A stretch of DNA of 64,000 nt from Variovorax sp. YR216 (lineage in GTDB: Bacteria; Pseudomonadota; Gammaproteobacteria; Burkholderiales; Burkholderiaceae_C): assembly GCF_900107745.1 (NCBI RefSeq), contig NZ_FNRO01000002.1, positions 310,001 to 374,000 of the forward strand, in the 5' to 3' direction. The stretch's first letter is position 1, and every line of letters starts with the position of its first letter. The notes below the pieces were generated by a model. The model saw only the letters and a program-made list of their open reading frames with translations, was not told the origin of the DNA and searched no databases. Below, piece by piece: positions 26,753 through 53,924 of the stretch. The translations under genes were made by a program, and so were the position numbers.

Positions 26753-26770
26753 ACCAGAAAGAAATTGATC

Positions 26771-28480
26771 ATGAAAACCTTTGCCAATCTCAGGATCTCA
26801 GCCAAGCTGCTCGTATCCTTCATCGCGGTGCTTGCATTGACCGTCGTCGTCGGTGTGATCTCTATCGTGCAGCTCTCGAAGGTCAACGAAATGTCGACCG
26901 AGATCACGAGAAACTGGATGCCGTCCACGCGCACCCTGCTCGAGTCCAAGAGCCTCATGGCGCGCTACCGCACGGCCGAGCTGCAGCACATCCTCTCGGA
27001 CACGCTGACGGAAATGTCCGACTACGAAAAGTCGATGGGCGCCACCTGGAACGACCTGCAGAAGAACGTCGCCGAGTACGAGAAGCTCGTCTCCGAACCC
27101 GAAGAGCGCGAGATCTTCCCCGTGTACAAGAAGACGCTTGCGCTCTACGCGGCGGAACATGAGAAGGTCGTGGGACTCTCGCGCGCACAGAAGAAAGATG
27201 GCGCGACTGCGGTGATCCGCGGCGAGTCGCTGCGACTGAACCGCGAGCTCAACGAGATGATCGACAAGCTCGCCGCGGTGAACCTGGCCGGTGCGAGCAA
27301 GGCCGACCAGACGGCCGACGCGGTTTATGCCAGTGCGCGCGTGTGGGTCGTCGGCCTGCTGATCGGCAGCATCGTGGTGGGGCTCGTGCTCGCGCTCACC
27401 ATCGCCCGCGCCGTCGCCAAGCCCCTCACGGATGCGGTGAAGGTGGCCCAGTCGGTCGCCGCTGGCGATCTCACCAGCCGCATCGATGCGCAGACCACGG
27501 ATGAAACCGGCATGCTGCTCGCGGCGCTCAAGGAGATGAACGGCAGCCTCGTGAAGATCGTGAGCGAAGTGCGCACGGGCACGGACACGATCGCGACTGC
27601 GTCGGGCCAGATCGCATCGGGCAACCAGGACCTGTCGTCGCGCACCGAAGAGCAGGCCAGTTCGCTGGAAGAAACCGCAGCGTCGATGGAAGAGCTCACC
27701 AGCACGGTGAAGCAGAACGCGGACAACGCACGTCAGGCGAACCAGCTCGCGGTGTCGGCTTCGGAAGTCGCCGTGCGCGGCGGCAGCGTGGTGAATCAGG
27801 TCGTGGACACCATGGGCTCGATCAATGCCTCGTCGCGCAAGATCGTGGACATCATCGGTGTCATCGACGGCATCGCCTTCCAGACCAACATCCTGGCGCT
27901 GAATGCGGCCGTCGAAGCCGCACGCGCCGGCGAGCAGGGCCGCGGCTTCGCAGTGGTTGCTTCCGAAGTGCGCAACCTCGCGCAACGCTCTGCCGCTGCT
28001 GCCAAGGAAATCAAGACCCTCATCGACGACTCGGTGGGCAAGGTCGAGGAAGGCAGCAAGCAGGTGGCCGAAGCCGGCCGCACGATGGAAGAGATCGTCG
28101 AGAGCGTGAAGCGGGTGACCGACATCATGGGCGAGATCACCGCGGCGAGCCAGGAACAGACCTCGGGCATCGAGCAGATCAACCAGGCCATCACGCAGAT
28201 GGACCAGGTCACGCAGCAGAACGCCGCACTGGTCGAGGAAGCCGCTGCCGCCGCGGGTTCGCTGCAGGAGCAGGCCACGAGCCTCGTGAAGTCCGTCAGC
28301 ATCTTCCGCCTCGGCAGCGACAACGAGGCTGCCCGCGCGATTGCGCAGGCACGTGCGAAGAGTGCGCCGGCCGCATCGCCGCGCGCCGCCAAGTCCGCAC
28401 CGGCTGCAAAGCCGGCGCCCGCAGCGCAGCCGCAGGCCGTCGCGCGCACCGAACCCTCGGGCGACTGGACGGAATTCTGA
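26771..28480 (+). CDS. Methyl-accepting chemotaxis protein 7 (CheR tether)
   Basis: This is a chemoreceptor of 569 residues from the ATG at 26771; a TTG at 26765 also opens the frame. TM1 (about 11-32) and TM2 (about 190-212) bracket a four-helix type periplasmic domain with [24 protein letters not shown] and the shared signalling domain follow. A long Ala/Pro-rich linker (about 510-562) ends in SGDWTEF for CheR docking. It is the last receptor of the row, followed by the flgKL promoter. Confidence 0.92.
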
Positions 28481-28513
28481 TCCGCCTGATCCCCGCACCG
28501 GCGCCGCAGGTCT

Positions 28514-28540
28514 TCAACATCCACCCGAGGGTGCCGATAT
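28514..28540 (+). promoter_or_regulatory. Sigma-28-like promoter of flgKL
   Basis: GCCGATAT at 28533-28540 matches seven of eight bases of the FliA -10. Eleven bases upstream lies TCAACATC, which shares the TxAA core but is otherwise weak. It is 66 bases before the flgK ATG, which fits the late, hook-associated class. Confidence 0.65.
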
Positions 28541-28606
28541 AGACGGGGAAGGCATCGCAGCGATGCCACCCCCCGCCGAACTCCTCACCACACAGGTCAA
28601 AAGAAC

Positions 28607-30571
28607 ATGTCAGGAAGCTTGTTTTACACGGGTCTGAGCGGCCTCAGCGTGGCCCGCACCGCGTTGATGACCACGGCCCACAACACTGCCAACGTCTACA
28701 CCGCGGGCTACAGCCGCCAGGTCGCCCAGGTCTCGACCAACGCCGCGCTGGCCACCGGCTCCGGCTACATCGGCAGCGGCGCGCGCGTCACCACCGTCAC
28801 GCGCAGCTACGACGCCTACCTCACTGCCCAGCTTGCGGGCGCGCAATCCGATTCGGCCGCGCTCAGCGCCTACAGCACGCAGATCAATCGCATCGACTCG
28901 CTGCTCGCGGACAAGACCGCCGGCCTCAGCCCGCTGATGCAGAGCTTCTTCACCGCGGTGCAAGGCGTCGCGAACACGCCGGCCGACTCGGCCGCGCGGC
29001 AGCAGCTCATCAGCTCGGCGCAGTCGCTGGCGAACAAGTTCCGCTCGACGGACCAGTATCTGTCGGACACGAACACGTCGATCAACGACCAGATCGTCGG
29101 CAGCGTCGACCAGATCAACACCTATTCCAGCAAGATCGCGAGCCTCAACCAGCAGATCGGCATGATGGCCGCCGTCGCGGGCGGCCAGCCGCCGAACGAC
29201 CTGCTCGACCAGCGCGACCAGCTCGTCAGCGAACTGGGCCAGATCGTCGACGTGAAGGTGCTGGAGCAGGACAACGGCAAGTACAACGTCTTCATCGGCA
29301 CCGGCCAATCGCTGGTCGTCGGCGACCAGGCTGCGACGATGAAGGCGGTGAACTCGGCCGCCGACCCCACGCGCAAGGCCCTCGCGCTCGTAGGCATTGC
29401 AGGCAACGTGCAGGAACTGAGCGACAAGTCCATCACCGGCGGCTCGCTCGGCGGCATCCTGAGCTTCCGCAACGAATCGCTCATTCCCACCCAGAACGCG
29501 ATCGGCCGCCTGTCGATGGCGCTCGCGAGTGCAGTCAACGACCAGCAGAACCTCGGTGTCGATCTCAACGGCGTGCTCGGCCAGGACTTCTTCACCACCG
29601 CCGCACCCGGGGTGTTCTCGAATGCCAAGAACAATGGCAACCTCGTGGTCACCGGCACCATCGCGGACGCCGGCCAGCTCACCACCAGCGACTACACGGT
29701 GCAGGTCAAGGACGTGTCAGGCACGCTGAACTACATCGTGACGCGCAGCTCCGACAACCAGGCCGTCGGCACCTACACCAGCTTCCCGATCAACTTCGAC
29801 GGCGTGAGCCTCAGCGCCGCCAGCGGTACCGCGCAGGACGGTGACAGCTTCCTGGTGCAGCCGACCCGCTACGGCGCGCGCGACATGGACGTGGTCATCA
29901 AGGACCCGGCCAAGGTCGCCGCCGCCTCGCCGATCATCACGGGCACCACGGCCGGCAACCAGGGCTCGGGCGCGATCACTGCCGCGACCGTCGACAGCAA
30001 CTACCTTGCATCGCCGCTGGCCGCCAACGTCACGCTGAGCTACGACGCCACGACGAACGAACTCTCGGGCTTCCCCGCGACCTCGGCCGTCACCGTCACG
30101 CTGTCCAACGGCACCTCCACCACCTACGCGGCCGGCACCCCGGTGCCCTACACCGCGGGCGCGAGCATCAGCTTCGACGGCATCGCCTTCACGATGAGCG
30201 GAGCCCCGTCGCAAGGCGACACCTTCACCGTCAACAAGAACTCTGCGGGCGTGTCGGACGGCAGCAATGCCCTGTTGATGGGCGCACTGCAGCGCCAGGC
30301 GCTGGTCGGCAATGGCACCACCACCTTCAACGGCGCGTACTCGCAGCTCGTGAGCGAGGTCGGCAACAAGTCGATGGAGATCAGCACCGCCAGCACCACG
30401 CAGGACAGCGTGACCAGCCAGATCAAGGCGGCGCAGCAATCCATCTCCGGCGTCAACCAGGACGAGGAAACCGCCAACCTGCTGATGTACCAGCAGATGT
30501 ACCAGGCCAATGCCAAGGTGATCCAGACCGCATCGACGATCTTCGACGCGATCCTCGCCATCAGCGCCTGA
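28607..30571 (+). CDS. flgK: Hook-filament junction protein FlgK (HAP1)
   Basis: FlgK is the first junction protein between hook and filament and a client of FlgN. The 654-residue product has the N-terminal signature LFYTGLSGLSVARTALMTTA with HNTANVYTAGYSRQV, and the C-terminal ETANLLMYQQMYQANAKVIQ. The centre holds Thr/Gly-rich surface domains and is longer than in E. coli FlgK. No strong ribosome site is visible before the ATG. Confidence 0.96.
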   Translation: MSGSLFYTGLSGLSVARTALMTTAHNTANVYTAGYSRQVAQVSTNAALATGSGYIGSGARVTTVTRSYDAYLTAQLAGAQSDSAALSAYSTQINRIDSLLADKTAGLSPLMQSFFTAVQGVANTPADSAARQQLISSAQSLANKFRSTDQYLSDTNTSINDQIVGSVDQINTYSSKIASLNQQIGMMAAVAGGQPPNDLLDQRDQLVSELGQIVDVKVLEQDNGKYNVFIGTGQSLVVGDQAATMKAVNSAADPTRKALALVGIAGNVQELSDKSITGGSLGGILSFRNESLIPTQNAIGRLSMALASAVNDQQNLGVDLNGVLGQDFFTTAAPGVFSNAKNNGNLVVTGTIADAGQLTTSDYTVQVKDVSGTLNYIVTRSSDNQAVGTYTSFPINFDGVSLSAASGTAQDGDSFLVQPTRYGARDMDVVIKDPAKVAAASPIITGTTAGNQGSGAITAATVDSNYLASPLAANVTLSYDATTNELSGFPATSAVTVTLSNGTSTTYAAGTPVPYTAGASISFDGIAFTMSGAPSQGDTFTVNKNSAGVSDGSNALLMGALQRQALVGNGTTTFNGAYSQLVSEVGNKSMEISTASTTQDSVTSQIKAAQQSISGVNQDEETANLLMYQQMYQANAKVIQTASTIFDAILAISA

Positions 30572-30603
30572 TCGATATCGACCCACAGATTCAAGGAGCC
30601 GTG

Positions 30604-31815
30604 ATGCGCATCAGCACCAGTTCTTTCTACGAGCAGAACGTCAAAGCCATGGGTCTGCAGCAGCAGAACCTCTTCCGTGTCCAGCAGCAACTGTCGGCGG
30701 GGACCAAGTTCCTCACCGCCGGTGACGATCCGGTGGGCGCCGCCCGCGCCCTGGGCGTCGGCGAATCGCTGGCTGAATCGGCGCAGTACGCGACCAGCCG
30801 CGACCGCGCGAACCTTTCCCTGTCGCGCGAGGAAACCGCGCTCGACAGCGTGACCAGCATCCTGCAGAACATCAAGATGCTCACCGTGCAGGCCGGCAAC
30901 GGCACGCTGTCGGACGCCGATCGCGGCGCGCTCGCGACCACCATCCAGAGCAACCTCGACCAGCTCGTCGGCCTGGCCAACTCCGACGACGGCAACGGCC
31001 AGTTCCTCTTCGCCGGCTACAAGAGCGCCAGTGCGCCCTTCGTGCAACAGGCCGGGGGCGGCGTGCAGTACATCGGCGACCAGGGCCAGCGTCTGATGCA
31101 GGTGGACGTGGCGCGCCAGATGTCGACCGGCGACGACGGTCGCACCGTCTTCCAGTCGGTGCAGGGCGGGGCGGGCTACGTCACCTCCGAGGCGGCGGCC
31201 AATACCGGCAGCGGCGTGTTCAGCAGCGTCGGCATCAAGGATGCGACCGACCCCAATTACGGCAAGGACTTCCAGATCAGCTTCCTCGGCGGCAACTACA
31301 CCGTCACCACCAACGACACGCCGCCCGTCGTCGCTGCCGCAGGCGCCTACACCGAAGGCTCGGCGATCAGCTTCGGCGGCCTGCAGATCAGCATCACCGG
31401 CACGCCGGCCGATGGCGACAGCTTCAACGTCACCACGGCCAAGAATGCCGGCACCGACATCTTCGCGTCGATCAGCGCGCTGGTCACCGCGCTCAAGACT
31501 CCGCTGACCGGCGGTGGCGCCGCGGCGCAGGCGAGCCTGCAGAACGCGCTGAGCACCGCCAACGTCAAGGTCACGAATGCGCACGACAACGTGCTGACCA
31601 TCCTTTCGTCGGTGGGTTCACGCATGTCCGAGCTCGATTCGCTCAACTCCAGCGGCGCATCGCGCGACCTGCTCGACAAGAGCTACCTGTCGGACATCCA
31701 GGACCTGGACCCGACGGCTGCCATCTCCGAGTTCTACCAGCGGCAGACCTCGCTGCAGGCCACGCAGATGACTTTCGCGAAGCTGAACTCGATCGCGCTG
31801 TTCAACTATCTCTGA
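30604..31815 (+). CDS. flgL: Hook-filament junction protein FlgL (HAP3)
   Basis: FlgL is the second junction protein, 403 residues. The N-terminus RISTSSFYEQNVKAMGLQQQ and QLSAGTKFLTAGDDPVGAAR are typical, as is the C-terminal DLDPTAAISEFYQRQTSLQA. A GTG at 30601 opens the frame, but AAGGAG is correctly spaced for the ATG at 30604. It follows flgK by 32 bases, and together they form a two-gene operon. Confidence 0.95.
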   Translation: MRISTSSFYEQNVKAMGLQQQNLFRVQQQLSAGTKFLTAGDDPVGAARALGVGESLAESAQYATSRDRANLSLSREETALDSVTSILQNIKMLTVQAGNGTLSDADRGALATTIQSNLDQLVGLANSDDGNGQFLFAGYKSASAPFVQQAGGGVQYIGDQGQRLMQVDVARQMSTGDDGRTVFQSVQGGAGYVTSEAAANTGSGVFSSVGIKDATDPNYGKDFQISFLGGNYTVTTNDTPPVVAAAGAYTEGSAISFGGLQISITGTPADGDSFNVTTAKNAGTDIFASISALVTALKTPLTGGGAAAQASLQNALSTANVKVTNAHDNVLTILSSVGSRMSELDSLNSSGASRDLLDKSYLSDIQDLDPTAAISEFYQRQTSLQATQMTFAKLNSIALFNYL

Positions 31816-31818
31816 CGA

Positions 31819-32319
31819 CTACTGCGGGCTGCTTGCTGCGGAGACTGCGATGTCGCCGCAGAAGAGGTCCAGATTGCCGTCGGCTGGTGCGCTCCTGATG
31901 AGGAGCGCATGCGGCGTTGCTTCCAGCACGGCCAGACGGACCATGGCGGTGTTCTGGATGGTGTAGGGCGGTCCGATCTGGTCTGCGGAACCCTTCGAAC
32001 GGGCCAACACGGTCTCGTTGAGCGAATGAGCGGGACGGCTTGACAGGGCGCCGCAGGCACCCTCGTAGATGTAGGTGTAGAGATGGACGGGCCGGCTGAC
32101 GAAGGGCGGAACGCCGGCTGCCGTGACCGACACGGCGGTTTGCTCTCCGCGTGCGACAAGATGGGCCCAGGCGTTCTTGCCTGCGTTGATGCGGCTCCCC
32201 GCAAGAGGGATATTCACCACGATGCCCGCCCGGGTGTCCGCGGTCTGCGTCGTCGGGACTGCGGCGCATCCCGCAAGCCCGATGGTGAACGCAGCGGCAA
32301 TCGATGCAAGCGATCGCAT
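31819..32319 (-). CDS. Small lipoprotein of unknown function
   Basis: This 166-residue product starts at the ATG 32319, six bases after a GGAGGT. The signal MRSLASIAAAFTIGLAGC ends in a perfect lipobox (LAGC), so it should be lipid-anchored. The mature part is probably a compact beta-rich domain (VHLYTYIYEGACGALSSRPA, then LEATPHALLIRSAP). I do not recognise the family. It converges on flgL, with stop codons 3 bases apart, and diverges from the histidine phosphatase gene. Confidence 0.72.
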   Translation of the reverse strand: MRSLASIAAAFTIGLAGCAAVPTTQTADTRAGIVVNIPLAGSRINAGKNAWAHLVARGEQTAVSVTAAGVPPFVSRPVHLYTYIYEGACGALSSRPAHSLNETVLARSKGSADQIGPPYTIQNTAMVRLAVLEATPHALLIRSAPADGNLDLFCGDIAVSAASSPQ

Positions 32320-32546
32320 GAGACCTCCACAGGCGCCAATACTGAACCTCCGATGAAAAAAGTCCAGGCGGGATTCTGCAAGGCTCGAAGAACCGGCACG
32401 CGCCACCGACAAACCCCCCATTAGGCGACCGGCCCTGGCTCCATGCGTCCCCTTTCTTGAGGGCAACGATTCGCCACCGCGACCCTACGATTGCGCGCAG
32501 GGCTCTCGCAATTGCGAGCATCCGCAAGGAAGACAGGAGGTCGAGA

Positions 32547-32597: not shown

Positions 32598-33178
32598 ACC
32601 GGTCTCGGATCAGCTCGCGCTCGCTGGGCTGCAGAGTCGCTGAAGCCTTGGCCGTGCTGTTTGCGGTCCTGCTTTCCGCATTCACCTGCGAGGCGGCGGC
32701 CGAGGATCTGAGAATCCTGATCGTCCGGCACGGCGAGAAGCCGCAGACAGGCGACAACCTGTCCTGCCAGGGCGAAAACCGCGCGCTGGCCCTGCCCGCG
32801 GTGCTCATGAAGAAGTTCGGACGGCCCGGGCTGGCCTACGTCCCGAAGCTCGAGACGAAGGCGTCCACCAGGCATGCCCGCATGTTCCAGACGGTCACGC
32901 CCTTCGCGATACAGCAGGACCTGACGGTCAACAGCAAGTACGCCGAGGAGGACGTCACCGGCGCCGCCCAGGACGTGCTCCAGCAAACCGGACTCGTGCT
33001 CATGGTTTGGGAGCACACGCAAATCCCGCCGCTGGCCAAGGCCCTGGGGGTGAAGAACCCGCCGTCCTGGCGGAAGGACGATTTCGATTCCATCTGGGTG
33101 GTGACGCCATCCGGTGGCGTGGCCACGCTCACGACGACGGCCGAGGGTCTCAAGCCCTCGCCGAAGTGCAGCTTCTGA
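32594..33178 (+). CDS. Secreted histidine phosphatase superfamily protein
   Basis: This 194-residue protein has a signal peptide (basic MNRSRISSRSLGCR, hydrophobic ALAVLFAVLLSAFT, likely cut near EAAA-ED). The mature part opens RILIVRHGEKPQ with the RHG phosphohistidine motif. It has KASTRHARMFQTVTPF, where family members place the conserved Arg-Thr pair. The second catalytic His is probably in VWEHTQIPPLAKAL. It resembles periplasmic phosphoglycerate mutase-like phosphatases; the substrate is unknown. It overlaps the leader ORF and precedes the DNase II-like gene by 70 bases. Confidence 0.8.
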   Translation: MNRSRISSRSLGCRVAEALAVLFAVLLSAFTCEAAAEDLRILIVRHGEKPQTGDNLSCQGENRALALPAVLMKKFGRPGLAYVPKLETKASTRHARMFQTVTPFAIQQDLTVNSKYAEEDVTGAAQDVLQQTGLVLMVWEHTQIPPLAKALGVKNPPSWRKDDFDSIWVVTPSGGVATLTTTAEGLKPSPKCSF

Positions 33179-33248
33179 AGCCGTTGTCTTGAGCCCGGCC
33201 CCGAGGACGAGGCTGGCCGCACACCAGGTCACAAGAAGGAGGGGAAGC

Positions 33249-34550
33249 ATGTGGATGACAGGACATGGCCTCCATCGGCTGGCGGCGCTCGCATCCCACT
33301 CGGTCTTCGCGTTGCTGCTGCTCGCGGCCCAGGCGACCTACTGCGACGACGGCACGGCCTCTGCGAGTGGCGCCGGCGGGACGCCGCGGCCGCTGCTGCA
33401 GGACGGCAAGCCGGTGGACTGGTGGTTCGTCTTCAAGTTCAACGCCAAGTCCTTTCCGGCGTGCGGCGCCGCCAGCCGGCCGACATGCCCCTTCGGCGGG
33501 ACACCCACGACGCAAAAGTTCAGCCAGCAATTCGTCTATGCCAGCAGCGACAACTCTCTGCTCAAACAGGGGGATGGCTGTGTGGGGGATACGGACACGG
33601 ATCCGGTGGGCGCGACTTTCGGGGAGCTCTATCGCGGCGGTTTCTTCTACGTCGTGTGGAACGACCAGTTCTATCAAGATCCGGATATCTCCGGCTGTGG
33701 GGACTCCTGCGGTGCGCCGTGGGGTCACTCCAAGGGCATGCTGGCGTGGAACGAAGCAGGCGAAGGCCTCGTCCTCCAGGTGACGACGCCGTCCTGGCCG
33801 GGATCGGGAAGCTCCGATTTCCCGCGTGGTCCGGGCGGGAATACCTTGGGTTGCAGCACGCAGACCAACAACGTGCTCGTCAGCCAGCACTTCTTTGCCG
33901 TGCGGTTGACCCGGCAAGACGTGTCTCAGGTGCTCGACGCGCTGGCCAATGCAAGCGTGGTCACGAACCTCCAGGATCCCCGCCTCGTTCATAGCGGCGG
34001 CCCGTCCGAGATCGTCGATCGGGTCAACCAGCTGGGCAGGAAATCGCGGGAAACGAAGGTGGTCCGGGTGCAACTGTCCTCCGGGGTGGGGCTCCTGTCG
34101 AAGCCGTCGGCACTCCACGTGCCGCCGTGGCAACTCGTCTCCGCCGAGCTTGGCCGCGTGCCGCTGCGCGTCGCCACCTGGTGGACGAACCCCGCCATCG
34201 ATTCGACGCAGGCGGCCACGACCGTCGAATGCTGGGATTCGAGTCTGTCCACGCCCGGGGCCGTTCAGATCGCTACCTCCGGCAGCTGGAGCGGTGTGGC
34301 GTTCGGACTCAAGGGTGGGCCGGGCCCTGATTTCAATCATGCAAAGATCGGCGTCTCGACAGGAGGCGACCATCGCTTCGTCATCTTCGGTGACATGAAT
34401 CAGCAGGGGGTGCTGTCGTCGGATAACTGCGGGCGCAGCCAGAACGGACGCGGCGGCCTGTTCTACGTCGTCGAAGACGCCATCCTTGCGGACAGCGTCT
34501 CCCGGCTGATCGACGGCAGCAGCGCGCCTGTCGACGGAGCCCATCCATGA
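33249..34550 (+). CDS. Deoxyribonuclease II-like secreted nuclease
   Basis: This 433-residue protein has a signal peptide (about 1-32). Its mature part follows the DNase II fold of eukaryotic lysosomes: KPVDWWFVFKFN near the N-terminus, GAPWGHSKGMLAWN with H160-S-K162, and DFNHAKIGVS with H364-A-K366. FVIFGDMNQQG and RSQNGRGGLF match the C-terminal DNase II block. The two HxK motifs correspond to the phospholipase-D-like active site of DNase II. Several Cys could form disulfides. DNase II would cut DNA without metal ions, outside the cytoplasm. GGAGGGG precedes the ATG at 33249. DNase II is uncommon in bacteria. Confidence 0.83.
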   Translation: MWMTGHGLHRLAALASHSVFALLLLAAQATYCDDGTASASGAGGTPRPLLQDGKPVDWWFVFKFNAKSFPACGAASRPTCPFGGTPTTQKFSQQFVYASSDNSLLKQGDGCVGDTDTDPVGATFGELYRGGFFYVVWNDQFYQDPDISGCGDSCGAPWGHSKGMLAWNEAGEGLVLQVTTPSWPGSGSSDFPRGPGGNTLGCSTQTNNVLVSQHFFAVRLTRQDVSQVLDALANASVVTNLQDPRLVHSGGPSEIVDRVNQLGRKSRETKVVRVQLSSGVGLLSKPSALHVPPWQLVSAELGRVPLRVATWWTNPAIDSTQAATTVECWDSSLSTPGAVQIATSGSWSGVAFGLKGGPGPDFNHAKIGVSTGGDHRFVIFGDMNQQGVLSSDNCGRSQNGRGGLFYVVEDAILADSVSRLIDGSSAPVDGAHP

Positions 34551-35710: not shown

Positions 35711-36697
35711 TCACCGAAGCTCGGAATCGCTCGGCTCCAGCAGGAACGAGAGCCGCTTCAGGATCGCATTCACGAACGCGCTGCGGTGCTGAAAGTAGTT
35801 GAAGGTCGGATGCATCTCGCTGCCGACGTGACGCTTGAAGGCGTAACTGGTGACGCCGAAGTCGATCTTCCGGATGCCGTCCCGAATGCAGATGTTGACC
35901 GCCTGGAGCATGAGCGCAAAGTACAGCTTGTAGTGCTGGCTCTTGCCGTAGTCCATGCCGATGTACTTGCAGTACATGATCTCCTCGCTGCACATCAACT
36001 GGTGGAAGCCGATCATCGTGTCGCCCTCGAAATAGAAGAGGTACTTGCTAGACGATGCGCTTTCCCGGAAGTACTCGACATTCAATTGCTCGAACTGGAT
36101 GGGGGCGTTGTCGCAGGTCTGGCGATAGAGCTCATGCACCCGCAGCAGATGCTCGGGCGGCAGGCCGTCGACCTCGGCCAGCCGGAGTCCGGCCGAAGCC
36201 TTCAGCTTGCGCTTCAGGTCGGTTCGGACCTTGTGTTTGAGCCGCGCCCAGTAGTCGGGGGAAACCTCGAGCACGGGCACCGGCAGGCCGACGACCTTGT
36301 TGAAGTTCTTCAGGGCCAGGTTGCCGTCGAAACCCTTGTAGGACACCAGCGGCGCGAGCTTGCGCAGTTCCGAGTTGATCGCTTCGAGAACTTCGGCTGA
36401 TTGTTCGCCTTCGATGTGCCCGATGTCGGCGGAAGGATGCCCGACGAGGGCGATCCTCAAGGCGAGGCCGCCCAGCAGCTTCTTGAGCAACCCCGGCGGC
36501 ATCATCGTGTTGAGTGGCAGCTTCATCGTGAAGAAGGGCGCGGTTGCCACCGCCTGGCCTTCTCGCTTGACGATGAGGCAGCCGAGTTCGAAGCCCGGCA
36601 CGCGTGCCCGGGCGTACGCGCGGTAGAAGGCGCCGCCTTCCGGACTGTCGATGAGAAAGTCCAGAGGGACGTTCTCGACGCGTTCGACCAGGATCAT
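35711..36697 (-). CDS. FemAB/GNAT-type acyltransferase next to an acyl carrier protein
   Basis: This is a 328-residue cytoplasmic protein of the FemAB-like GNAT type. The first half has GFELGCLIVKREGQAVATAP and FTMKLPLNTMMP. The second half has RTDLKRKLKASAGL, YFRESASSSKYLFYFEGDTM, IGFHQLMCSEEIMYCKYIGM and INICIRDG-like helices. Such proteins transfer acyl or aminoacyl groups to amines, in peptidoglycan-related or lipid products. It lies 46 bases downstream of ACP copy 1 in the same direction, so an acyl-ACP is a plausible donor. The product is unknown. Confidence 0.78.
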   Translation of the reverse strand: MILVERVENVPLDFLIDSPEGGAFYRAYARARVPGFELGCLIVKREGQAVATAPFFTMKLPLNTMMPPGLLKKLLGGLALRIALVGHPSADIGHIEGEQSAEVLEAINSELRKLAPLVSYKGFDGNLALKNFNKVVGLPVPVLEVSPDYWARLKHKVRTDLKRKLKASAGLRLAEVDGLPPEHLLRVHELYRQTCDNAPIQFEQLNVEYFRESASSSKYLFYFEGDTMIGFHQLMCSEEIMYCKYIGMDYGKSQHYKLYFALMLQAVNICIRDGIRKIDFGVTSYAFKRHVGSEMHPTFNYFQHRSAFVNAILKRLSFLLEPSDSELR

Positions 36698-36743
36698 CGC
36701 GAGCGGTGCAACGCCAATGCACCGCTGGCGCGGGGGAGCAATC

Positions 36744-37004
36744 TCAAGTCGGCATCGCCTGCTGCGGCACCTGCTCGATCACCTCGCACATCCGCGCGAG
36801 CGTGATGCCGGCTTCGCGCGGGTCCAGCTTGTCTTCGGGAATGCGCAGGCGGAACGCGTCCTCGACGGCAAACACGAACTCCATCAAAGCCAGCGAATCG
36901 AGGCCGAGCTCGACCAGAGGCCGATCGGGCCGGATCTCGGCGCGGGCGACCTGGAAGTCGTTCTCGAGAATGATGGAAATGGTCTGGAAGGTGACGGAAG
37001 TCAT
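36744..37004 (-). CDS. Acyl carrier protein, copy 1
   Basis: This 86-residue ACP has the phosphopantetheine site in LVELGLDSLALMEFVFAVED, with the modified Ser at about 37. It is acidic and helical as usual. It differs from copy 2 (40072-40332) at roughly a dozen residues, and most of the DNA is the same, so the two are recent duplicates. It is not the housekeeping AcpP: the helix II sequence differs and there is no fab cluster. The start ATG at 37004 lies about 20 bases after a 40-base element shared with the copy 2 operon. Confidence 0.88.
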   Translation of the reverse strand: MTSVTFQTISIILENDFQVARAEIRPDRPLVELGLDSLALMEFVFAVEDAFRLRIPEDKLDPREAGITLARMCEVIEQVPQQAMPT

Positions 37005-37023
37005 GGCGGAAGGCTGAGACAGC

Positions 37024-37064
37024 GCATCGCGGGAATCTACTTCGAGCATCTGAACATGGACTGA
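37024..37064 (-). promoter_or_regulatory. Conserved upstream element of ACP copy 1
   Basis: Read on the minus strand it begins TCAGTCCATGTTCAG and continues GCTCGAAGTAGATT, ending in GATG. It matches 39009-39048 at about 34 of 40 positions in the same orientation relative to the ACP genes. It may be a promoter (TAGATT as a -10) or operator. Confidence 0.5.
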
Positions 37065-37177
37065 CCTCGCGCAGAGACCTGCGTTTTCGTGTGCACCCGC
37101 CGATGTGCAGAAGGCTCGCGATGCACTCGATCGAATGCCGCAGTGCGCCCATCGCCTTGATGTACCAGGCGACAGAC

Positions 37178-37348
37178 CTATCGGATGAGAAGAAACACTG
37201 CCACTGCGAGGACGACCGCTGCAATGACGATCTTCGCAACCGAAGGCCAGCCTCTTCTCACCGGCTCGTGCGTGAGGTCCGCGCGATTCAGGGCAACGAA
37301 GCCGCTGAAGCTCTGGGTGTCGGTCGATCGATCTGCCATGCGGGTCAT
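37178..37348 (-). CDS. Small single-pass membrane protein (56 residues)
   Basis: Starting MTRMADRSTDTQSFSGFVAL, this short frame ends in a hydrophobic helix, KIVIAAVVLAVAVFLLIR, at the very C-terminus. That is a tail-anchored layout with a basic end. The ATG at 37348, or the inner ATG at 37339, lacks a strong ribosome site. It lies between ACP copy 1 and the DUF2252 gene, on their strand. The function is unknown; the charge and hydrophobic pattern argue it is real. Confidence 0.5.
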   Translation of the reverse strand: MTRMADRSTDTQSFSGFVALNRADLTHEPVRRGWPSVAKIVIAAVVLAVAVFLLIR

Positions 37349-37422
37349 TGTGCTGAAGCTTGTTATTCCTATCCAAGGAGAAAACGCACACCTTTGTCCT
37401 CAATCTGATCGTGCGGCATGGC

Positions 37423-38649
37423 TCAGGCACCACTGGGCCGATCGGAGGAGGAATAGGCCCCGGCGTCGTATGCGGCAGCGTAGGTCGACCAGTCCTGCTG
37501 CACCTGCTTCGCGGCCTCGATCGAGGCATCGAGCACCCGTGTCTTCCATTTGCTGCGCTGCCCGAAGTCGATCAGCTCATCGGCGATGTCCGAGCCTTCG
37601 CGCCCGCCGCTTCGCAATTGCGCCCACGCCACCAGCTTCGCCATCACGGTGATCACACCCTCGAGATCACTGGCGCTTTGCGCCGACTTGCCGCCCAGTG
37701 CCACGCGGTCCTCGGCCGGTTGCAGGGCGCGCAGGACGTACGGCGACTGGCCCACGACCACGGGCTGCAGGAAGGCCATGGAAACCGCCTGCACGCGGCG
37801 CTGGAGTGTCACGACCCGATGCGCTTCCGACTTCCACTTGGGTTGTTCGACTTTCTTCAGGTGCGGCACCAGCGACGATGGCATGGCCTGCTTCAGGTCC
37901 AGCACGTAGTTGCCGTCAGGCGAGCCTTTGCCCTCGACCAGGATCGCGTAGCGGTCGACGCCCAGACTGCCCGTGCCGGCGATGCGCCGCGCCACGTCCA
38001 GCACCTCGTAGAACTTCGGGTTCGGCTGCGCCGCGGCAAATTCATGGATGACCTTGACGGCCATCGCCCGCTGCTGGTCGGAGGCTGCCAGCGCCTTCTT
38101 GCCATCCGCTCGCAACACGCGCCGGCGTCCTTTCATGTCGGTGCGGCTGGCGAGAAATTGCGAGCGCTGCCGTTCTCGCAACCCGTCGAGCAGCACGCGA
38201 ACCAGGCCCTGGGCCGTGTCGCGTTCCACCCAGTAGGCCTTGCCGTTGCAGAGCGCCGACGCATAGCTGTCGATGAAGATCTCGCAGAGCCTGCGCACCT
38301 CGCGGGTTCCCACGGAGATGCTCTCGGCGCCGACCCAAAGACTGGTCAGGAACCGGATCAAGTCCCAGCTCGCGGGTGCGAGCGCGGCCTCGTCGAAGTC
38401 GTTGATGTCGAAGTAGACGAGGCGGTTGTCGCCCTTGTAGCTGCCGAAGTTCTCCAGGTGCAGGTCGCCGCACACCCAGGTCAGCGGCGCCGAGCGCGGC
38501 GCGCCGATGCGCGCAAGGCGGTCGTAGAAGAGATGGCAGGTCCCGCGGAGAAACACGAACGGGCTGGTGCGCATGCTGCGGTACTTGAGCGCCAGGCGGT
38601 CCGGATCACGGCCCTGATTGAAGGATCGGATTTCACGTACGACATCCAT
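37423..38649 (-). CDS. DUF2252 family protein (kinase-like fold)
   Basis: This 408-residue cytoplasmic protein has the DUF2252 hallmarks: RTSPFVFLRGTCHLFYDRL, then VCGDLHLENFGSYKGDNRLV and YFDINDFDEA. The HLENFG and FDINDFDEA blocks resemble the catalytic and metal-binding loops of aminoglycoside-phosphotransferase-like kinases. The substrate is unknown. The start is the ATG at 38649, after GAGGAGGT; the frame extends eight codons further. It lies between two very small membrane-protein genes and the ACP genes. Confidence 0.85.
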   Translation of the reverse strand: MDVVREIRSFNQGRDPDRLALKYRSMRTSPFVFLRGTCHLFYDRLARIGAPRSAPLTWVCGDLHLENFGSYKGDNRLVYFDINDFDEAALAPASWDLIRFLTSLWVGAESISVGTREVRRLCEIFIDSYASALCNGKAYWVERDTAQGLVRVLLDGLRERQRSQFLASRTDMKGRRRVLRADGKKALAASDQQRAMAVKVIHEFAAAQPNPKFYEVLDVARRIAGTGSLGVDRYAILVEGKGSPDGNYVLDLKQAMPSSLVPHLKKVEQPKWKSEAHRVVTLQRRVQAVSMAFLQPVVVGQSPYVLRALQPAEDRVALGGKSAQSASDLEGVITVMAKLVAWAQLRSGGREGSDIADELIDFGQRSKWKTRVLDASIEAAKQVQQDWSTYAAAYDAGAYSSSDRPSGA

Positions 38650-38766
38650 CACGCACCTCCTCTTCCGAGGCATCGATCACTTTCGGCAAGACGATACGCG
38701 AAATGGCAAAGGGCCGTGCGCAATTCGTCAGGGAACACTCAGCCTCGTTGCTGCACAGTGCCTTCC

Positions 38767-38922
38767 ATGCCACGCATGTCACAGAGAAGCAGACGTCTGA
38801 AGATCATCAAGAATGCGCGCCCGCCGTCAACAGGCGTGATGCTCCGGCACGCGGCCTCTGCCGTGCTGGCCGTGGCGATCATCGCCGGAGTGCATTCAAT
38901 CAATACGCTCCTGAATCACTGA
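38767..38922 (+). CDS. Small single-pass membrane protein (51 residues)
   Basis: The frame encodes a basic N-terminus (MPRMSQRSRRLKIIKNARPP) followed by a hydrophobic helix, AASAVLAVAIIAGVHSI, and a short polar tail. A second ATG lies three codons on. No strong ribosome site is visible, so the call is tentative. It mirrors the small protein on the other side of the DUF2252 gene in size and layout, but not in sequence. Confidence 0.4.
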   Translation: MPRMSQRSRRLKIIKNARPPSTGVMLRHAASAVLAVAIIAGVHSINTLLNH

Positions 38923-39008
38923 TACGCACGGCGTCGCGTTGCCGCCGGGCATGGCGAGGCCTCACGCACCGGTGCGAACATCTCGGTGGGACAGAGGTCC
39001 GTTCGAGT

Positions 39009-39048
39009 TCAGTCCGTGTTCAGTCGCTCGAAGTAGATTGCCCGGATG
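39009..39048 (+). promoter_or_regulatory. Conserved upstream element of the hydrolase-ACP2-ketosynthase operon
   Basis: It starts TCAGTCCGTGTTCAG and continues GCTCGAAGTAGATT, ending in GATG. About 34 of 40 bases equal the element before ACP copy 1. It lies 141 bases upstream of the hydrolase start. The rest of the 38923-39189 gap holds nothing recognised. Confidence 0.5.
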
Positions 39049-39189
39049 ATCCGTCCTAGCCAGCTATTGAACGCGGTCGCAGGGTGTGTTGCGACGTCAT
39101 CGAACAGATCGCACCTGATCTGCGCCTGACTCCGGACAGGACGCGAATGCTGAGCGCAATGCATCTTCGGTTGAGTTGAGAGTCTTCCC

Positions 39190-40032
39190 GTGACCGCGCG
39201 TCTTTCTCCTGTCGACGTTCTTCGTGTCGACCCTTCCGTTTCACGTCGGACCGCCGTGGTGTTGCTGCACGGCCTGTGCAGCACGCCCGATGAGCTGTTG
39301 TCGATCGCTGTCGGCCTGCGCGGCGCAGGCTATTCCGTGCACGCGCTGACCGTCGATGGCTATTCTTTCGAGCCCTCGGCACCGTCGCGGCACGCCACAT
39401 CCTGGCGTCAGTGGGTCGATGCGGTCGAGAGCTGCGTCGATGGTCTGCGCGCGAAGCACGACCGAGTCATGCTCATCGGCATATCGGCCGGCTCTGCGCT
39501 GGCCCTTGCCGCCGCGATGCGCTGCGGCGCGCGCATCGATGCGCTGGTCCTGATGTCCACCACGCTGCGCTTCGACGGCTGGGCCATCCCGCGCCGCCAC
39601 AAGCTCCTGCCGCTGGCCCTGTACACCCCGCTCGGACGCTTCTGGCGCTATCGGGAACGCGCGCCCTATGGTGTCAAGAACGAGCGCGTGCGCCACTGGA
39701 TCGAGCGTGAGCTGCGCCAGCGCAAGGTCTCGCGCGCGGGCGCCGCGGTCATCGGCATCTCGCACCTGCGAGAACACGACCGCCTGATTCGGCATGTGCG
39801 CGGCAGACTGAACCAGGTCACCTGTCCCCGGGTGCTTGCCATTCACGCGAAGGAGGATGAGGTGGCGAGTGTCGCCAACCTGGATCTGCTGCGACAGGGG
39901 CTGCGCGGATGCGCGCTGCAGACCGTGGTGGTGGACAACAGCTATCACATGATCACCATCGACAACGATCGCCAGCAGGTGCTGCGCGAAACGCTCGAGT
40001 TTGCCGCTGCGGTCTCGCACCGCGTTGCTTGA
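39190..40032 (+). CDS. Alpha/beta hydrolase (esterase/lipase type)
   Basis: This is a 280-residue cytoplasmic hydrolase. It has the oxyanion region VVLLHGLCSTPDEL, the nucleophile elbow GISAGS (Ser99), a likely acid D223 in HAKEDEVAS, and H253 in VDNSYHMIT. The layout is like monoacylglycerol lipases and carboxylesterases. The start is GTG at 39190. It opens an operon with ACP copy 2 (39 bases on) and a ketosynthase, so it may act as a thioesterase or deacylase on the ACP-bound product. Confidence 0.85.
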   Translation: MTARLSPVDVLRVDPSVSRRTAVVLLHGLCSTPDELLSIAVGLRGAGYSVHALTVDGYSFEPSAPSRHATSWRQWVDAVESCVDGLRAKHDRVMLIGISAGSALALAAAMRCGARIDALVLMSTTLRFDGWAIPRRHKLLPLALYTPLGRFWRYRERAPYGVKNERVRHWIERELRQRKVSRAGAAVIGISHLREHDRLIRHVRGRLNQVTCPRVLAIHAKEDEVASVANLDLLRQGLRGCALQTVVVDNSYHMITIDNDRQQVLRETLEFAAAVSHRVA

Positions 40033-40071
40033 AGACGTCGAGGCGAAGGCCCGCCGTCCGGAGATTCCGCC

Positions 40072-40332
40072 ATGAGTTCACCCACTTTCGAAACCATTTC
40101 CACCATCCTCGAGAACGACTTCCAGGTCGCCCGCGCCGACATCCAGCCCGATCGGCCGCTGGTCGAGCTCGGTCTCGATTCGCTTGCCTTGATGGAGTTC
40201 GTGTTTGCCGTCGAGGATGCATTCCATCTGCGCATTCCCGAAGACAAGCTTGACCCGCGCGAAGCCGGCATCACGCTGCGGCGTATGTGCGAGGTGATCG
40301 AACAGGCGCCGCCCCAGGCGATGGCGACTTGA
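40072..40332 (+). CDS. Acyl carrier protein, copy 2
   Basis: This 86-residue ACP has the same GLDSLALMEFVFAVED site as copy 1; the Ser at about 37 carries the phosphopantetheine arm. GGAG lies nine bases before the ATG. Its stop overlaps the start of the ketosynthase (TTGA), so the pair is translationally coupled. The coupling points to this ACP as the ketosynthase partner. Confidence 0.9.
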   Translation: MSSPTFETISTILENDFQVARADIQPDRPLVELGLDSLALMEFVFAVEDAFHLRIPEDKLDPREAGITLRRMCEVIEQAPPQAMAT

Positions 40333-41552
40333 GTTCGCTGGTCTGCGTCAGCGGCGTGGGGTTGGTTTCGCCCCTCGGCCACACGCTGGCTGCATTCGAC
40401 GAGGCCCTGTTCGCGGGTCGTTCCGCCGTCGTCGCGCGGACCCTCGAGATGGAGGGGCTCGAGCCGATGTCGTTGCCCCTCGCGCCTTGCGCGTTCGACG
40501 ACTCGGAGCGCAGCGTCTCGCGTCTGCCGCTCGACCGCGGGACGGCCATGGCGCTGGCGGCAGCGCGCGATGCCTATGCGCAGGCCGGACTGGCAGAGAC
40601 GCCGCCGGCGGATGAGCGTCTCGGCATCTACTGGGGCAGCGGCATGGCCGGCATTGCCACCTACGACGACAGCGCGCGAACGCTCTACGTCGAGCGTCGC
40701 AGGGTTCGTCCCACGGCTGTGTTGAGCGCCATGCCGAATGCCGCGGCGGCAGAGCTCAGCCTGCGTTTTCGCGCACGCGGTGCGTCGCTGACCTATGCGT
40801 GCGCGTGTGCGTCGTCGGCCGTTGCCATTGGCGAGGCGATGCGCGCGATCCGTGCCGGCTGGATCGACGTCGCCATCGTCGGCGGCCATGAGGCCATGCT
40901 CACGCCGGGCACGCTTGCGGGCTGGCATGCCATGCGTGTGCTGGCGACCCCGCCGGCCGACGATCCGGCCAGCGCCTGCCGGCCGTTCTCGGCCGACCGG
41001 AGCGGCTTCGCCATGGGGGAGGGCGCTGCGGCGCTGGTGATCGAATCGGAGGCCCATGCGAAAGCGCGCGGCGTCGGCGTCGATCTCGTGCTGGCCGGCT
41101 ATGCCACCAACAGCGACAGCACCCACATGACCAATCCTGACCCGTCCGGTCAGGCGCGTGCGATGCGCGCCGCCCTGGCGGACGCCGGGCTCTCGCCCGC
41201 CGATATCGGCCACATCAATGCACACGGCACCGCAACCGCAGCGGGTGACGCGGCCGAGGCGGCGTCGATCCACGATGTGTTCGGCGACGACGCGCCGGTC
41301 AGCGCGACCAAGGCGATCCACGGCCACCTGCTGGGCGGCGGCGGCGCGCTCGAACTCGTCGCGACCCTGAGAGCGCTGGTGCACCGCCGGCTGCCGCCGA
41401 CCGCACATCTGCGCCAACCCGATCCGGCTTTCTCGATCGATGTCGTGCGTGGCGAGGCGCGCAGCGCGCCCGGCCTGCGCTGGGCTGTGTCGAACTCTTT
41501 TGCATTCGGCGGTACCAACGCCGTGTTGGTCGCCGGGCGTAGCGGGGGCTGA
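40329..41552 (+). CDS. Beta-ketoacyl-ACP synthase (KAS II-like)
   Basis: This 407-residue condensing enzyme has the full Cys-His-His triad. C160 lies in YACACASSAVAIGEA, H299 in NAHGTATAAGD, and H333 in ATKAIHGHLLGG, with K328 beside it. GFAMGEGAAALVIE and SNSFAFGGTNAVLV are family blocks. It would elongate an acyl chain on the adjacent ACP. The best start is TTG at 40329, overlapping the ACP stop. No ketoreductase, dehydratase or acyltransferase domain lies beside it, so it must borrow partners or make only one condensation. Confidence 0.9.
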   Translation: MSSLVCVSGVGLVSPLGHTLAAFDEALFAGRSAVVARTLEMEGLEPMSLPLAPCAFDDSERSVSRLPLDRGTAMALAAARDAYAQAGLAETPPADERLGIYWGSGMAGIATYDDSARTLYVERRRVRPTAVLSAMPNAAAAELSLRFRARGASLTYACACASSAVAIGEAMRAIRAGWIDVAIVGGHEAMLTPGTLAGWHAMRVLATPPADDPASACRPFSADRSGFAMGEGAAALVIESEAHAKARGVGVDLVLAGYATNSDSTHMTNPDPSGQARAMRAALADAGLSPADIGHINAHGTATAAGDAAEAASIHDVFGDDAPVSATKAIHGHLLGGGGALELVATLRALVHRRLPPTAHLRQPDPAFSIDVVRGEARSAPGLRWAVSNSFAFGGTNAVLVAGRSGG

Positions 41553-46883: not shown

Positions 46884-48455
46884 GTGTCCCATCGTGCTCG
46901 CAGGGTAGCCGTGTGCCGACCAAGCCTCATTTCATGTGCTGCAGCCGGACTCGTCCTCTGCGGCTGCGGCGGCGGTGGCGGTGGGGGCGGAGGTGCGAGC
47001 AGCACGGCCGCCGCGATCCTGAGCGACATGTCACCCCCTACCGTGACCGCCGTGCGCGCCGGCGCGTCGCCGTTCATCGCGTTCGTGGACCTGCATTTCC
47101 CGGGAACAGGCGCCACGACTTCGGTGCACTACAGCATCGAGCCCAAGCCGGGGACCGTCTCGAGACCCGTCGACGTCAGCTATGCAGCCGCCTACTTGCA
47201 GCGGCGGGGCTATGTCGTCGCGAGCAGCAGCACCATCACGGTGCCCGTCTTCGGTCTGTATTCGAACTATGCGAACCAGGTCGACGTCGACGTACGAACC
47301 GCTGGCAGGCTGACGCAGCAATTGCGCGTGGAAGTCGACACCGCGGCCTACACCGATCCGAACGGCATCTATGACCGGCCGGTCACGATGAAGGCGCGCG
47401 TAGCCGGCGACTCGCTGGGGTTCGACTACTTCTACATGAAGTCCGGCCTGGGCAGCCCGGTGGTCGTCGATACCGACGGCCAGATCCGGTGGGTGGTTCC
47501 AACGGCGCTGCCGTCCCTCTCTTCGCTGTTCGTCGAGAACCATTTCGTCATCGGCGACAGCACGCCAGTCCAGGTCCGGCGCCTGGAACTGGACGGAACA
47601 TCCAGCGTGACGGGGCTGGGCGCCGTCGACGTCACCGACTTCAACCACAACGTCGATCCGGGCAAGGTCGGCCTGCTGGCCGACGTCGACACTGCACTCA
47701 ATGGTGTGACGAACTACGAGAGCACGGTCGTCGAATTCGACCCCCACAACGGCAGCGTGCTCTCGCAATGGGACCTGGGCGACATCCTGTCGCGCTACAT
47801 GCGAAGCCATGGCGATGACCCGGCGTCGTTCGTGCGGCCGGGCGCCGACTGGTTTCACCTGAACGCCGCGACCTACGACCCGAGCGACGATTCGGTCATC
47901 GTCTCCAGCCGCGAGAACTTCATTGCGAAGATCGACTACGACAGCGGCGATCTCATCTGGATCCTCGGCGACCCGACGAAATATTGGCACACGTTCCCCT
48001 CGCTGGCCGCCAGGAGCCTCACGCTCGCAGCCGGCGGCCTGTACCCCATCGGACAGCATGCCGTGTCGATCACGCACGACGGCCTGGTGCAGGTGTTCAA
48101 CGACGGATTGGGCTCCGTCAATCAACCCGCCGGTGCTCCGACGGGAGAAAGCAGAAACTACAGTGCCGTTTCGGCCTATTCGACTGATGAGGGCCATCTG
48201 GCTGCGGCGGAAGTCCGTCGGTTCGACGATGGCCAGAGCATCTTCTCCAGCATTTGCTCGAGCGCTTACGAGGCGCCGGCCGGCGCGTCCGTTCTGATCA
48301 GCTATGCGGTGGCTGACAACTTCACGCGTGCGCGGCTGATCGGCCTCGACGCGAGCCAGAACGTGGCCTTCGACTTCCAGTACGCAGCGTCGGGGTGCAA
48401 CACCAGTTGGAACGCCCAGCCGATCCCATTCGAATCGATGCAGTTCACCCAATAG
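46884..48455 (+). CDS. Arylsulfate sulfotransferase-like lipoprotein
   Basis: This 523-residue exported protein is like the ASST family, which moves sulfate between phenolic compounds in the periplasm. The signal MSHRARRVAVCRPSLISC, AAAGLVLCGC ends in a lipobox-like LCGC, followed by a run of nine or more Gly. The family blocks are DWFHLNAATYDPSDDSVIVS, SRENFIAKIDYDSGDLIWIL and PIGQHAVSITHDG. The likely catalytic His residues lie in FNHN, WFHLNA and QHAVSITH. The frame also allows a GTG at 46830, but the GTG at 46884 gives a normal lipoprotein signal. The donor and acceptor are unknown. Confidence 0.8.
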   Translation: MSHRARRVAVCRPSLISCAAAGLVLCGCGGGGGGGGGASSTAAAILSDMSPPTVTAVRAGASPFIAFVDLHFPGTGATTSVHYSIEPKPGTVSRPVDVSYAAAYLQRRGYVVASSSTITVPVFGLYSNYANQVDVDVRTAGRLTQQLRVEVDTAAYTDPNGIYDRPVTMKARVAGDSLGFDYFYMKSGLGSPVVVDTDGQIRWVVPTALPSLSSLFVENHFVIGDSTPVQVRRLELDGTSSVTGLGAVDVTDFNHNVDPGKVGLLADVDTALNGVTNYESTVVEFDPHNGSVLSQWDLGDILSRYMRSHGDDPASFVRPGADWFHLNAATYDPSDDSVIVSSRENFIAKIDYDSGDLIWILGDPTKYWHTFPSLAARSLTLAAGGLYPIGQHAVSITHDGLVQVFNDGLGSVNQPAGAPTGESRNYSAVSAYSTDEGHLAAAEVRRFDDGQSIFSSICSSAYEAPAGASVLISYAVADNFTRARLIGLDASQNVAFDFQYAASGCNTSWNAQPIPFESMQFTQ

Positions 48456-48459
48456 CCCA

Positions 48460-49236
48460 TCAGGTTTTCGCCACGGGCGGCCGACCCTGGCGCGCCGCCT
48501 GCCTGAAGGCCCGGCCGCGCGGAATCAGCATGCCGACCTGCCTGCGATAAGCGCGATGCCGTTCGCCGAACTGCACGAGCAGGTCGCGCTCTTCGAATGC
48601 GATGCCGATCAGGATGTAGGCACTGAACCCGAGCGCGAACAGCAGTCGCCCGAGCGTCATGACCGGCACGGACCAGAAGCTCAGCAGAAAGCCCGCGTAA
48701 AGGGGATGACGCACGTAGCGGTAGAACAGCGGCGTTCTGAATTCGCCCTGTGGCGCAGTGCGGCCGGTCAAGCCCGCAAAGACCTGCTGCAGCCCGAACA
48801 GCTCGAAGTGGTTGAGAAGAAACGTGCTGACGAGGGCCACCAGCCACCCGAGCCCGAACAGGCCCCACAGCAGCGCGGCGATGGACTCGTGCTCGACGCG
48901 CCACACGACGGGGGCGTCGATCGGTAGCCAGAGCCGTAACATCAACACCAGGACGACGCAGGTGGCGACGACGAAGGTGCTGCGCTCGATGACCGCCGGG
49001 ACAAGCTGCGCCCACCAGCGCTTGAAGCCTCTGCGCGCCATCACGCTGTGCTGGACGCCGAAGAGAACGAGCAGTGCCACATCGGTGCCCACGGCTTGCA
49101 TCCAACCCGCGCCGGGACCGACGTCGACCGACCTGGGGACCCACAGATTGCCGCTGAAGCCGATGAAATACAGCAGCGTCGCCGTGCTCGCCAGGTAGGC
49201 GAGCAGGCCATAGACAAACGACAACAGGGCGCGCAC
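48460..49236 (-). CDS. mddA: Methanethiol S-methyltransferase MddA (NnrU/ICMT-like)
   Basis: This 258-residue multi-pass membrane methyltransferase resembles MddA, which methylates methanethiol to dimethyl sulfide with S-adenosylmethionine. Matching features are YGLLAYLASTATLLYFIGF, LLVLFGVQHSVMARRGFKRW, VSTFLLNHFELFGLQQVF, and the ICMT-like RYVRHPLYAGFLLSFWSVPV. Five or six hydrophobic segments are visible. It converges on the sulfotransferase gene, 4 bases between stops, and diverges from the BTAD-hydrolase gene. MddA assignment is by remembered similarity. Confidence 0.8.
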   Translation of the reverse strand: MRALLSFVYGLLAYLASTATLLYFIGFSGNLWVPRSVDVGPGAGWMQAVGTDVALLVLFGVQHSVMARRGFKRWWAQLVPAVIERSTFVVATCVVLVLMLRLWLPIDAPVVWRVEHESIAALLWGLFGLGWLVALVSTFLLNHFELFGLQQVFAGLTGRTAPQGEFRTPLFYRYVRHPLYAGFLLSFWSVPVMTLGRLLFALGFSAYILIGIAFEERDLLVQFGERHRAYRRQVGMLIPRGRAFRQAARQGRPPVAKT

Positions 49237-49334
49237 GGTGAACTCCTTGGTGCAACTGAAAGCGTCACCCTAGAAGTCGGGCGTCCCTTGAACGTCCCTG
49301 GGCAGCGGCGCCACACCCGGCTATAAAACACGCG

Positions 49335-50957: not shown

Positions 50958-50996
50958 CGCACGCGGCCGGCTTCCGGCCGCCGATTAGCATGTCGC

Positions 50997-51410: not shown

Positions 51411-51421
51411 ATCCTCTGCCC

Positions 51422-53913: not shown

Positions 53914-53924
53914 CGGCGCAGGCC

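What the first reader, a model, noticed from the sequence alone, without database searches (positions are those of the whole stretch)
35711..41552. Compact two-ACP locus with ketosynthase, acyltransferase, hydrolase and DUF2252 protein
Within 6 kb lie two near-identical ACP genes. One is coupled to a FemAB/GNAT-type acyltransferase; the other is coupled by overlap to a KAS II-like enzyme and preceded by an alpha/beta hydrolase. A kinase-like DUF2252 gene and two tiny membrane-protein genes sit between them. No ketoreductase, dehydratase, ligase or polyketide synthase module is present. The set could make and transfer a special acyl group, such as an N-acyl amine or a modified envelope lipid. 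I know of no described system with exactly these parts; exosortase-linked loci have similar ACP, FemAB-type and hydrolase genes but no exosortase is seen here.
Basis: partly seen in the sequence, partly recalled or inferred. Interest (0 to 1): 0.75.

Follow-up and report, generated by a model that had tools for sequence, protein, structure and literature searches.

The report
Split ACP-dependent acyl-transfer gene module
A Variovorax bacterium carries genes for an acyl carrier protein (two copies), a ketosynthase, a lipase-like hydrolase and a Fem-like transferase, a set that also sits together in two other bacteria and is likely to make a special acyl group and attach it to a cell-envelope lipid or amino compound.

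Summary
The genes are real and the grouping is partly right. The core is four families: ACP, FabF-like ketosynthase (KS), monoacylglycerol-lipase-fold hydrolase (HYD) and a tandem-GNAT transferase of the FemX/MprF fold. They form one overlapping operon ACP-KS-HYD-GNAT in another genus of the family (G479) and one run GNAT-SMR-HYD-ACP-KS in Zoogloea. HYD-ACP-KS is contiguous in 64 of 110 HYD loci read. In 21 of 21 other Variovorax loci read it lies beside a two-component system (TCS) with an 11-bp-period direct repeat in the gap. The window strain keeps that TCS on another contig, without the cassette; here the module is two divergent units, ACP1-GNAT and HYD-ACP2-KS, each behind its own copy of the repeat. 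DUF2252 and the tiny membrane ORFs look resident: relative G020 has them at this place without the module. Distant GNAT and HYD relatives sit in TCS-phosphatase-aminotransferase-SMR-hydrolase-GNAT operons of Rhizobiaceae and Burkholderiaceae, which points to an envelope lipid. Against: 13 of 18 loci of this GNAT subfamily have none of the partners nearby. Product, donor and acceptor are inferred. Nine paper searches (listings, most capped) showed no described system with this set.

The parts
35711..36697 (-). Tandem-GNAT transferase (PF13480), FemX/MprF fold
   Evidence: Pfam; AF2 model pLDDT 92.5; Foldseek and VIA-align
36744..37004 (-). ACP1, near-copy of ACP2, DSL serine present
37044..37065 (-). 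Direct repeat GTCAG-N6-TTCAG before ACP1-GNAT, predicted response-regulator site
39008..39029 (+). Direct repeat TTCAG-N6-TTCAG before HYD-ACP2-KS, predicted response-regulator site
39190..40032 (+). HYD, alpha/beta hydrolase of monoacylglycerol-lipase fold, Ser-Asp-His
40072..40332 (+). ACP2
40287..41552 (+). KS, FabF-like with Cys-His-His motifs; real start may be TTG 40329
37178..38922 (.). Resident block, taken as NOT part of the module: 56-aa one-helix ORF (-), DUF2252 37423-38673 (-), 51-codon ORF 38767-38922 (+)
   Evidence: aligned to G020 without module genes; unlinked DUF2252 orthologues

Best explanation
This is a four-family acyl module (ACP, FabF-like ketosynthase, lipase-fold hydrolase, FemX/MprF-fold transferase), here split into two divergent units, that is likely to build or load an acyl chain on the carrier protein and predicted to transfer it to an envelope lipid or amino compound, probably under a two-component system. 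Shown: the four families form one overlapping operon in G479 and one run in Zoogloea; HYD-ACP-KS is a recurrent cassette; in the Variovorax loci read it lies beside a TCS with a direct repeat in the gap; both units here carry that repeat; the TCS orthologue lies on another contig of this genome. Inferred: KS condenses on ACP2; ACP1 presents the acyl group to the transferase, which forms an amide or ester on an amine-bearing lipid or amino acid; HYD releases or edits acyl esters or thioesters; the response regulator binds both repeats in trans.
For: Overlapping ACP-KS-HYD-GNAT in L272; GNAT-SMR-HYD-ACP-KS in L013; HYD-ACP-KS contiguous in 64 of 110 HYD loci; fused HYD-ACP protein P0100; GNAT and HYD in the same genome in 18 of 23 GNAT-positive genomes against 80 of 399 overall, 12 of 14 genera against 43 of 158; 4 of 4 genomes with an unlinked GNAT of this subfamily that were searched for HYD have the cassette elsewhere (L101, L195, L198, L201); repeat in 21 of 21 Variovorax loci and twice here; TCS on C6; folds; lipid-type neighbours of relatives.
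Against: Of 18 loci with a GNAT of this subfamily only 3 have the full set; 13 have none of HYD, ACP, KS, SMR within 6 kb. G434, the genome of L014, gave no KS match. GNAT P0003 lies on a 1.43-Mb contig, while none of the nearest HYD clusters P0038-P0045 lists a contig over 205,832 bases, so linkage is not general. FemX and MprF, the best fold matches, use aminoacyl-tRNA, not acyl-ACP (recalled). No transporter gene is in the window's module. The repeat with one mismatch is not clearly above the reversed control (12 against 8). No biochemical data.
Confidence: 0.5

Rival explanations
1. The transferase is an aminoacyl-tRNA enzyme like FemX or MprF: it adds an amino acid to a lipid or to an ACP-bound acyl group, and ACP, KS and HYD supply the acyl part.
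Against: The GNAT is coupled to an ACP gene here and lies in one operon with ACP, KS and HYD in L272; a shared fold does not show the donor.
Confidence: 0.25
2. The product is a diffusible N-acyl amino acid or signal, as with FeeM-type synthases, not an envelope lipid.
For: Dedicated ACP next to an acyltransferase gene is a feature of FeeM-type synthases (recalled; passages name FeeM and ACP binding).
Against: Relatives sit with ArnF-like and SMR membrane proteins, MipA, and an OlsE-like hydroxylase, although the family scores lie below the curated NCBIfam cut-offs.
Confidence: 0.15
3. ACP1-GNAT and HYD-ACP2-KS are unrelated units that met by chance in a variable island.
For: 13 of 18 GNAT loci of this subfamily have no partner nearby; the region is variable between strains.
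Against: Joint operons in L272 and L013; the same repeat before both units; ACP1 is a near-copy of ACP2.
Confidence: 0.1

Closest known systems
FemX / MprF aminoacyl transferase domain
   Different: About 10-14% identity; ACP, KS and HYD as gene partners; no MprF membrane domain; tRNA dependence not shown
Exosortase-A-associated loci with ACP, FemAB-type and hydrolase genes, and FeeM-type N-acyl amino acid synthases
   Same: Kind of parts: ACP, transferase, hydrolase
   Different: Hydrolase scores 21.4 bits against a cut-off of 202.75 for TIGR03101, GNAT matches no NCBIfam model; KS present; no FeeM hit by profile
Ornithine-lipid synthesis (OlsB/OlsA, OlsE)
   Same: GNAT-type acyltransferase; an OlsE-like hydroxylase gene beside the GNAT in Zoogloea (88.7 bits, cut-off 475)
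   Different: GNAT is PF13480, not PF13444 of OlsB; no OlsA-like gene seen among the proteins scanned
TCS-MtnX-like phosphatase-class III aminotransferase-arginase-like-SMR-hydrolase-GNAT operons (unnamed) of Rhizobiaceae plasmids and Burkholderiales
   Same: Homologues of HYD and GNAT, SMR and TCS genes; some Burkholderiales versions also hold ACP and KS
   Different: The window lacks phosphatase, aminotransferase, arginase-like and SMR genes; the plasmid GNATs are about 25% identical

Membership tests
FemX/MprF fold family | Tandem-GNAT fold | tested here: met
FemX/MprF fold family | Aminoacyl-tRNA as donor | not testable with these tools
   needs an assay
FabF (KAS II) equivalog | Score above the TIGR03150 cut-off | tested here: not met
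   352.7 bits, cut-off 493.75
FabF (KAS II) equivalog | Cys-His-His catalytic motifs | tested here: met
   motifs in the window KS
Exosortase-A-associated system | Hydrolase above the TIGR03101 cut-off | tested here: not met
   21.4 bits, cut-off 202.75
Exosortase-A-associated system | Exosortase gene nearby | tested here: inconclusive
   none among the window proteins scanned by Pfam; not every ORF was scanned and the genome was not searched
OlsB N-acyltransferases | PF13444 domain (feature from PMC11631085 passages) | tested here: not met
   PF13480 and, below its cut-off, PF04339; no PF13444 up to E 0.1
FeeM-type N-acyl amino acid synthases | Sequence or fold kinship to FeeM | tested here: inconclusive
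   not among profile hits nor the 50 fold rows shown; such absence does not exclude it
TCS-linked HYD-ACP-KS cassette of Variovorax | HYD, ACP, KS contiguous in this order | tested here: met
TCS-linked HYD-ACP-KS cassette of Variovorax | RR-HK genes beside the cassette | tested here: not met
   no RR or HK model hit within window 25001-52000; orthologous RR on contig C6

The most novel reading that the evidence does not exclude
A two-component-controlled, carrier-protein-dependent counterpart of MprF/Arn: a FemX-fold enzyme that takes acyl groups from a dedicated ACP and caps an amine-bearing envelope lipid, one branch of a large undescribed family of TCS-hydrolase-GNAT envelope-lipid operons in alpha- and betaproteobacteria.
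Probability: 0.35. Interest if true: 0.8.

Novelty: new variant of a known kind. Interest (0 to 1): 0.6.

Why it matters
Bacterial envelope lipids beyond phospholipids are poorly known. A compact set of ACP, KS, hydrolase and Fem-fold transferase that recurs in several genera and is tied to a two-component system gives a small, testable route to a new lipid or N-acyl compound, and could show a Fem/MprF fold fed by acyl-ACP. The Rhizobiaceae and Burkholderiaceae relatives suggest a wider, unnamed family of such operons.

Tried and rejected
DUF2252 as a kinase of the system: set aside as a resident gene. Plasmid origin of the GNAT: tblastn against plasmids gave 43 records, each under 60% identity; records near the window's own genome may be left out there. 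Bacterial ceramide synthase as a relative: a lead from memory; only a capped listing was seen, not tested. Repeat search with the wrong spacing (N5) was redone with N6. The third exact site (C12:758920) lies at the 3' ends of two facing ORFs and is taken as chance. Repeats inside HYD and near the KS end of some Variovorax loci were not followed. Paper searches: listings only, most cut at 8-12 of up to 2,293 papers, so a description could have been missed; PMC11631085 was seen as passages and no other paper was opened. A family that the structure listings do not show (FeeM) is not excluded.
Full report
What is there. The window lies on contig C28 of a 7.37-Mb genome; most named close relatives of its hydrolase are Variovorax. 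The seven genes of the finding are at the stated places. ACP1 and ACP2 share 232 of 261 bases, and a stretch upstream of ACP1 matches one upstream of HYD at 40 of 46 positions. Activity motifs are intact: DSL serine in both ACPs (sequences), Cys-His-His in KS, Ser-Asp-His in HYD.

Hydrolase. The HYD model (pLDDT 85.2) matches LipS and monoacylglycerol lipases, as does its sequence. Aligned, Asp and His are present in 110 of 110 loci. The nucleophile is Ser in 22 of 22 Variovorax loci (window included) but Cys in 40 of 42 other HYD-ACP-KS cassettes; HYDs beside class III aminotransferases have Ser in 11 of 11 listed; of 46 without a contiguous cassette 25 have Cys and 21 Ser. A Cys nucleophile would fit thioester handling or acyl transfer (inference).

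Recurrence. I read 126 loci chosen for HYD or GNAT hits. 110 hold HYD; 64 of these have HYD, ACP and KS contiguous in that order (21 of 21 other Variovorax loci, 42 of 88 others, and the window) and 46 do not. In the genus sample HYD is in 38 of 61 genomes, the own included; I read 21 of the other 37. Selection favoured good HYD hits. In the order sample GNAT is in 23 of 399 genomes (E 1e-15) and HYD in 80 of 399 (E 1e-25); 18 genomes have both (Fisher 7e-10; by genus 12 of 14, 2.7e-6, kinship not corrected). The overlap was listed by hand, and most weak GNAT hits belong to the aminotransferase-type clusters. A family-level search found GNAT in 33 of 399 genomes, all but G000 and G479 weaker than E 1e-37.

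The unit. Among 18 loci with a GNAT of the window's subfamily (model score 340 bits or more; L024 and L058 look like one contig) three have the full set: the window, Zoogloea SB3 (L013) and G479 (L272). In G479 the order is ACP 6610-6873, KS 6870-8120, HYD 8117-8965, GNAT to 9995, all overlapping. In Zoogloea it is a fatty-acid-hydroxylase-family gene, GNAT, SMR, HYD, ACP, KS, MipA on one strand; the hydroxylase is OlsE-like below the cut-off. L020 has HYD only, L014 only an SMR gene on a cut contig, 13 have none of these within 6 kb. Four of these 13 lie in whole genomes that were searched for HYD (G151, G400, G160, G073), and all four have HYD-ACP-KS elsewhere (L101, L195, L198, L201). Against: G434, the genome of L014, gave no KS match, hard to read for a fragmented assembly; P0003's long contig argues that linkage is not general. 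A fused HYD-ACP protein exists (P0100).

Regulation. In 21 of 21 other Variovorax loci the cassette lies beside an RR-HK pair, and the gap holds a direct repeat KTCAG-N6-KTCAG, 11-bp period, a spacing usual for OmpR-type regulators (recalled). In the window the repeat occurs twice, before HYD and before ACP1. In the whole genome the 22-base pattern has three exact sites; two are these; the third lies at the 3' ends of facing ORFs. With one mismatch allowed it is not clearly above the reversed control (12 against 8). In the 20 Variovorax loci the bare repeat occurs 58 times against 1.85 in shuffles, but the loci are related and some copies lie in coding sequence. The regulator's orthologue is on contig C6, 87% identical, 82 of 99 residues in the C-terminal DNA-binding part; that region keeps Variovorax flanks on both sides but gave no hit to the cassette proteins. 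Regulation here would be in trans (inference).

Island. G020, 81-92% identical in the single-copy aligned blocks, is syntenic with window 28060-32328, 37219-38935 and 47034-54827 (with gaps) on one contig. It has DUF2252 and part of the small ORF (33 residues matched) but neither GNAT-ACP1 nor HYD-ACP2-KS, which lie in window stretches 32.3-37.2 and 38.9-47.0 kb without a match there. G020 is 88% complete and has no HYD hit. Gain here or loss there is not settled. In the HYD tree the window and P0038-P0045 fall outside the clade of the other Variovorax (100/100), so this copy looks like a sister type rather than the moved native cassette. ACP1 and ACP2 have zero-length branches, which fits a recent copy or gene conversion.

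Wider family. More distant GNAT and HYD relatives lie in operons with an MtnX-like phosphatase, a class III aminotransferase, an arginase-like protein, SMR proteins (ArnF-like below the cut-off) and often a TCS: in Burkholderiales, some with ACP and KS, and on four Rhizobium, Sinorhizobium and Agrobacterium plasmids read out of 43 matching records, without ACP or KS by our models; two of the four have a desaturase gene, two MipA, one a cyclopropane-synthase-family gene. These contexts point to a lipid that is made, modified and moved; this is association and does not fix the product of the window's module.

Mechanism, marked. Shown: gene sets, motifs, predicted folds, repeats, synteny. Inferred: KS condenses on ACP2; ACP1 feeds the transferase; the transferase forms an amide or ester on an amine-bearing lipid or amino compound; HYD edits or releases; the regulator acts in trans. 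Main rival: an aminoacyl-tRNA donor, as for FemX and MprF. Literature: nine searches showed no description of the set among the listed titles and abstracts; one review was seen as passages (PMC11631085).

Noticed in passing
window 15969-28480: Array of methyl-accepting chemotaxis protein genes: 6 of 6 ORFs scanned have the MCP signalling domain; a further ORF 25046-26752 was not scanned.
   Followed up: partly
window 28607-31815 and 57649-60918: FlgK and a flagellin-family gene on one side, FliK-like and a FliI-type ATPase gene on the other: the variable island lies inside flagellar genes.
   Followed up: no
window 33114-34550: A bacterial DNase II family protein (PF03265, 56.7 bits), in a stretch without a match in G020.
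   Followed up: no
L268 3753-11752, L269 4675-11214, L270 3753-11213, L271 4535-10388: Conserved plasmid operon next to a two-component system: MtnX-like phosphatase, class III aminotransferase, arginase-like, EamA/permease, hydrolase, GNAT, EamA, in two followed by MipA; no description found.
   Followed up: partly
HYD-ACP-KS cassettes outside Variovorax (for example L098, L099, L101): HYD nucleophile is Cys in 40 of 42 of these cassettes but Ser in 22 of 22 Variovorax loci: a natural active-site switch.
   Followed up: partly
L234 (G000 contig C6), around 9500-11700: The native Variovorax TCS locus in this genome has kept its flanks but has no HYD-ACP-KS.
   Followed up: partly
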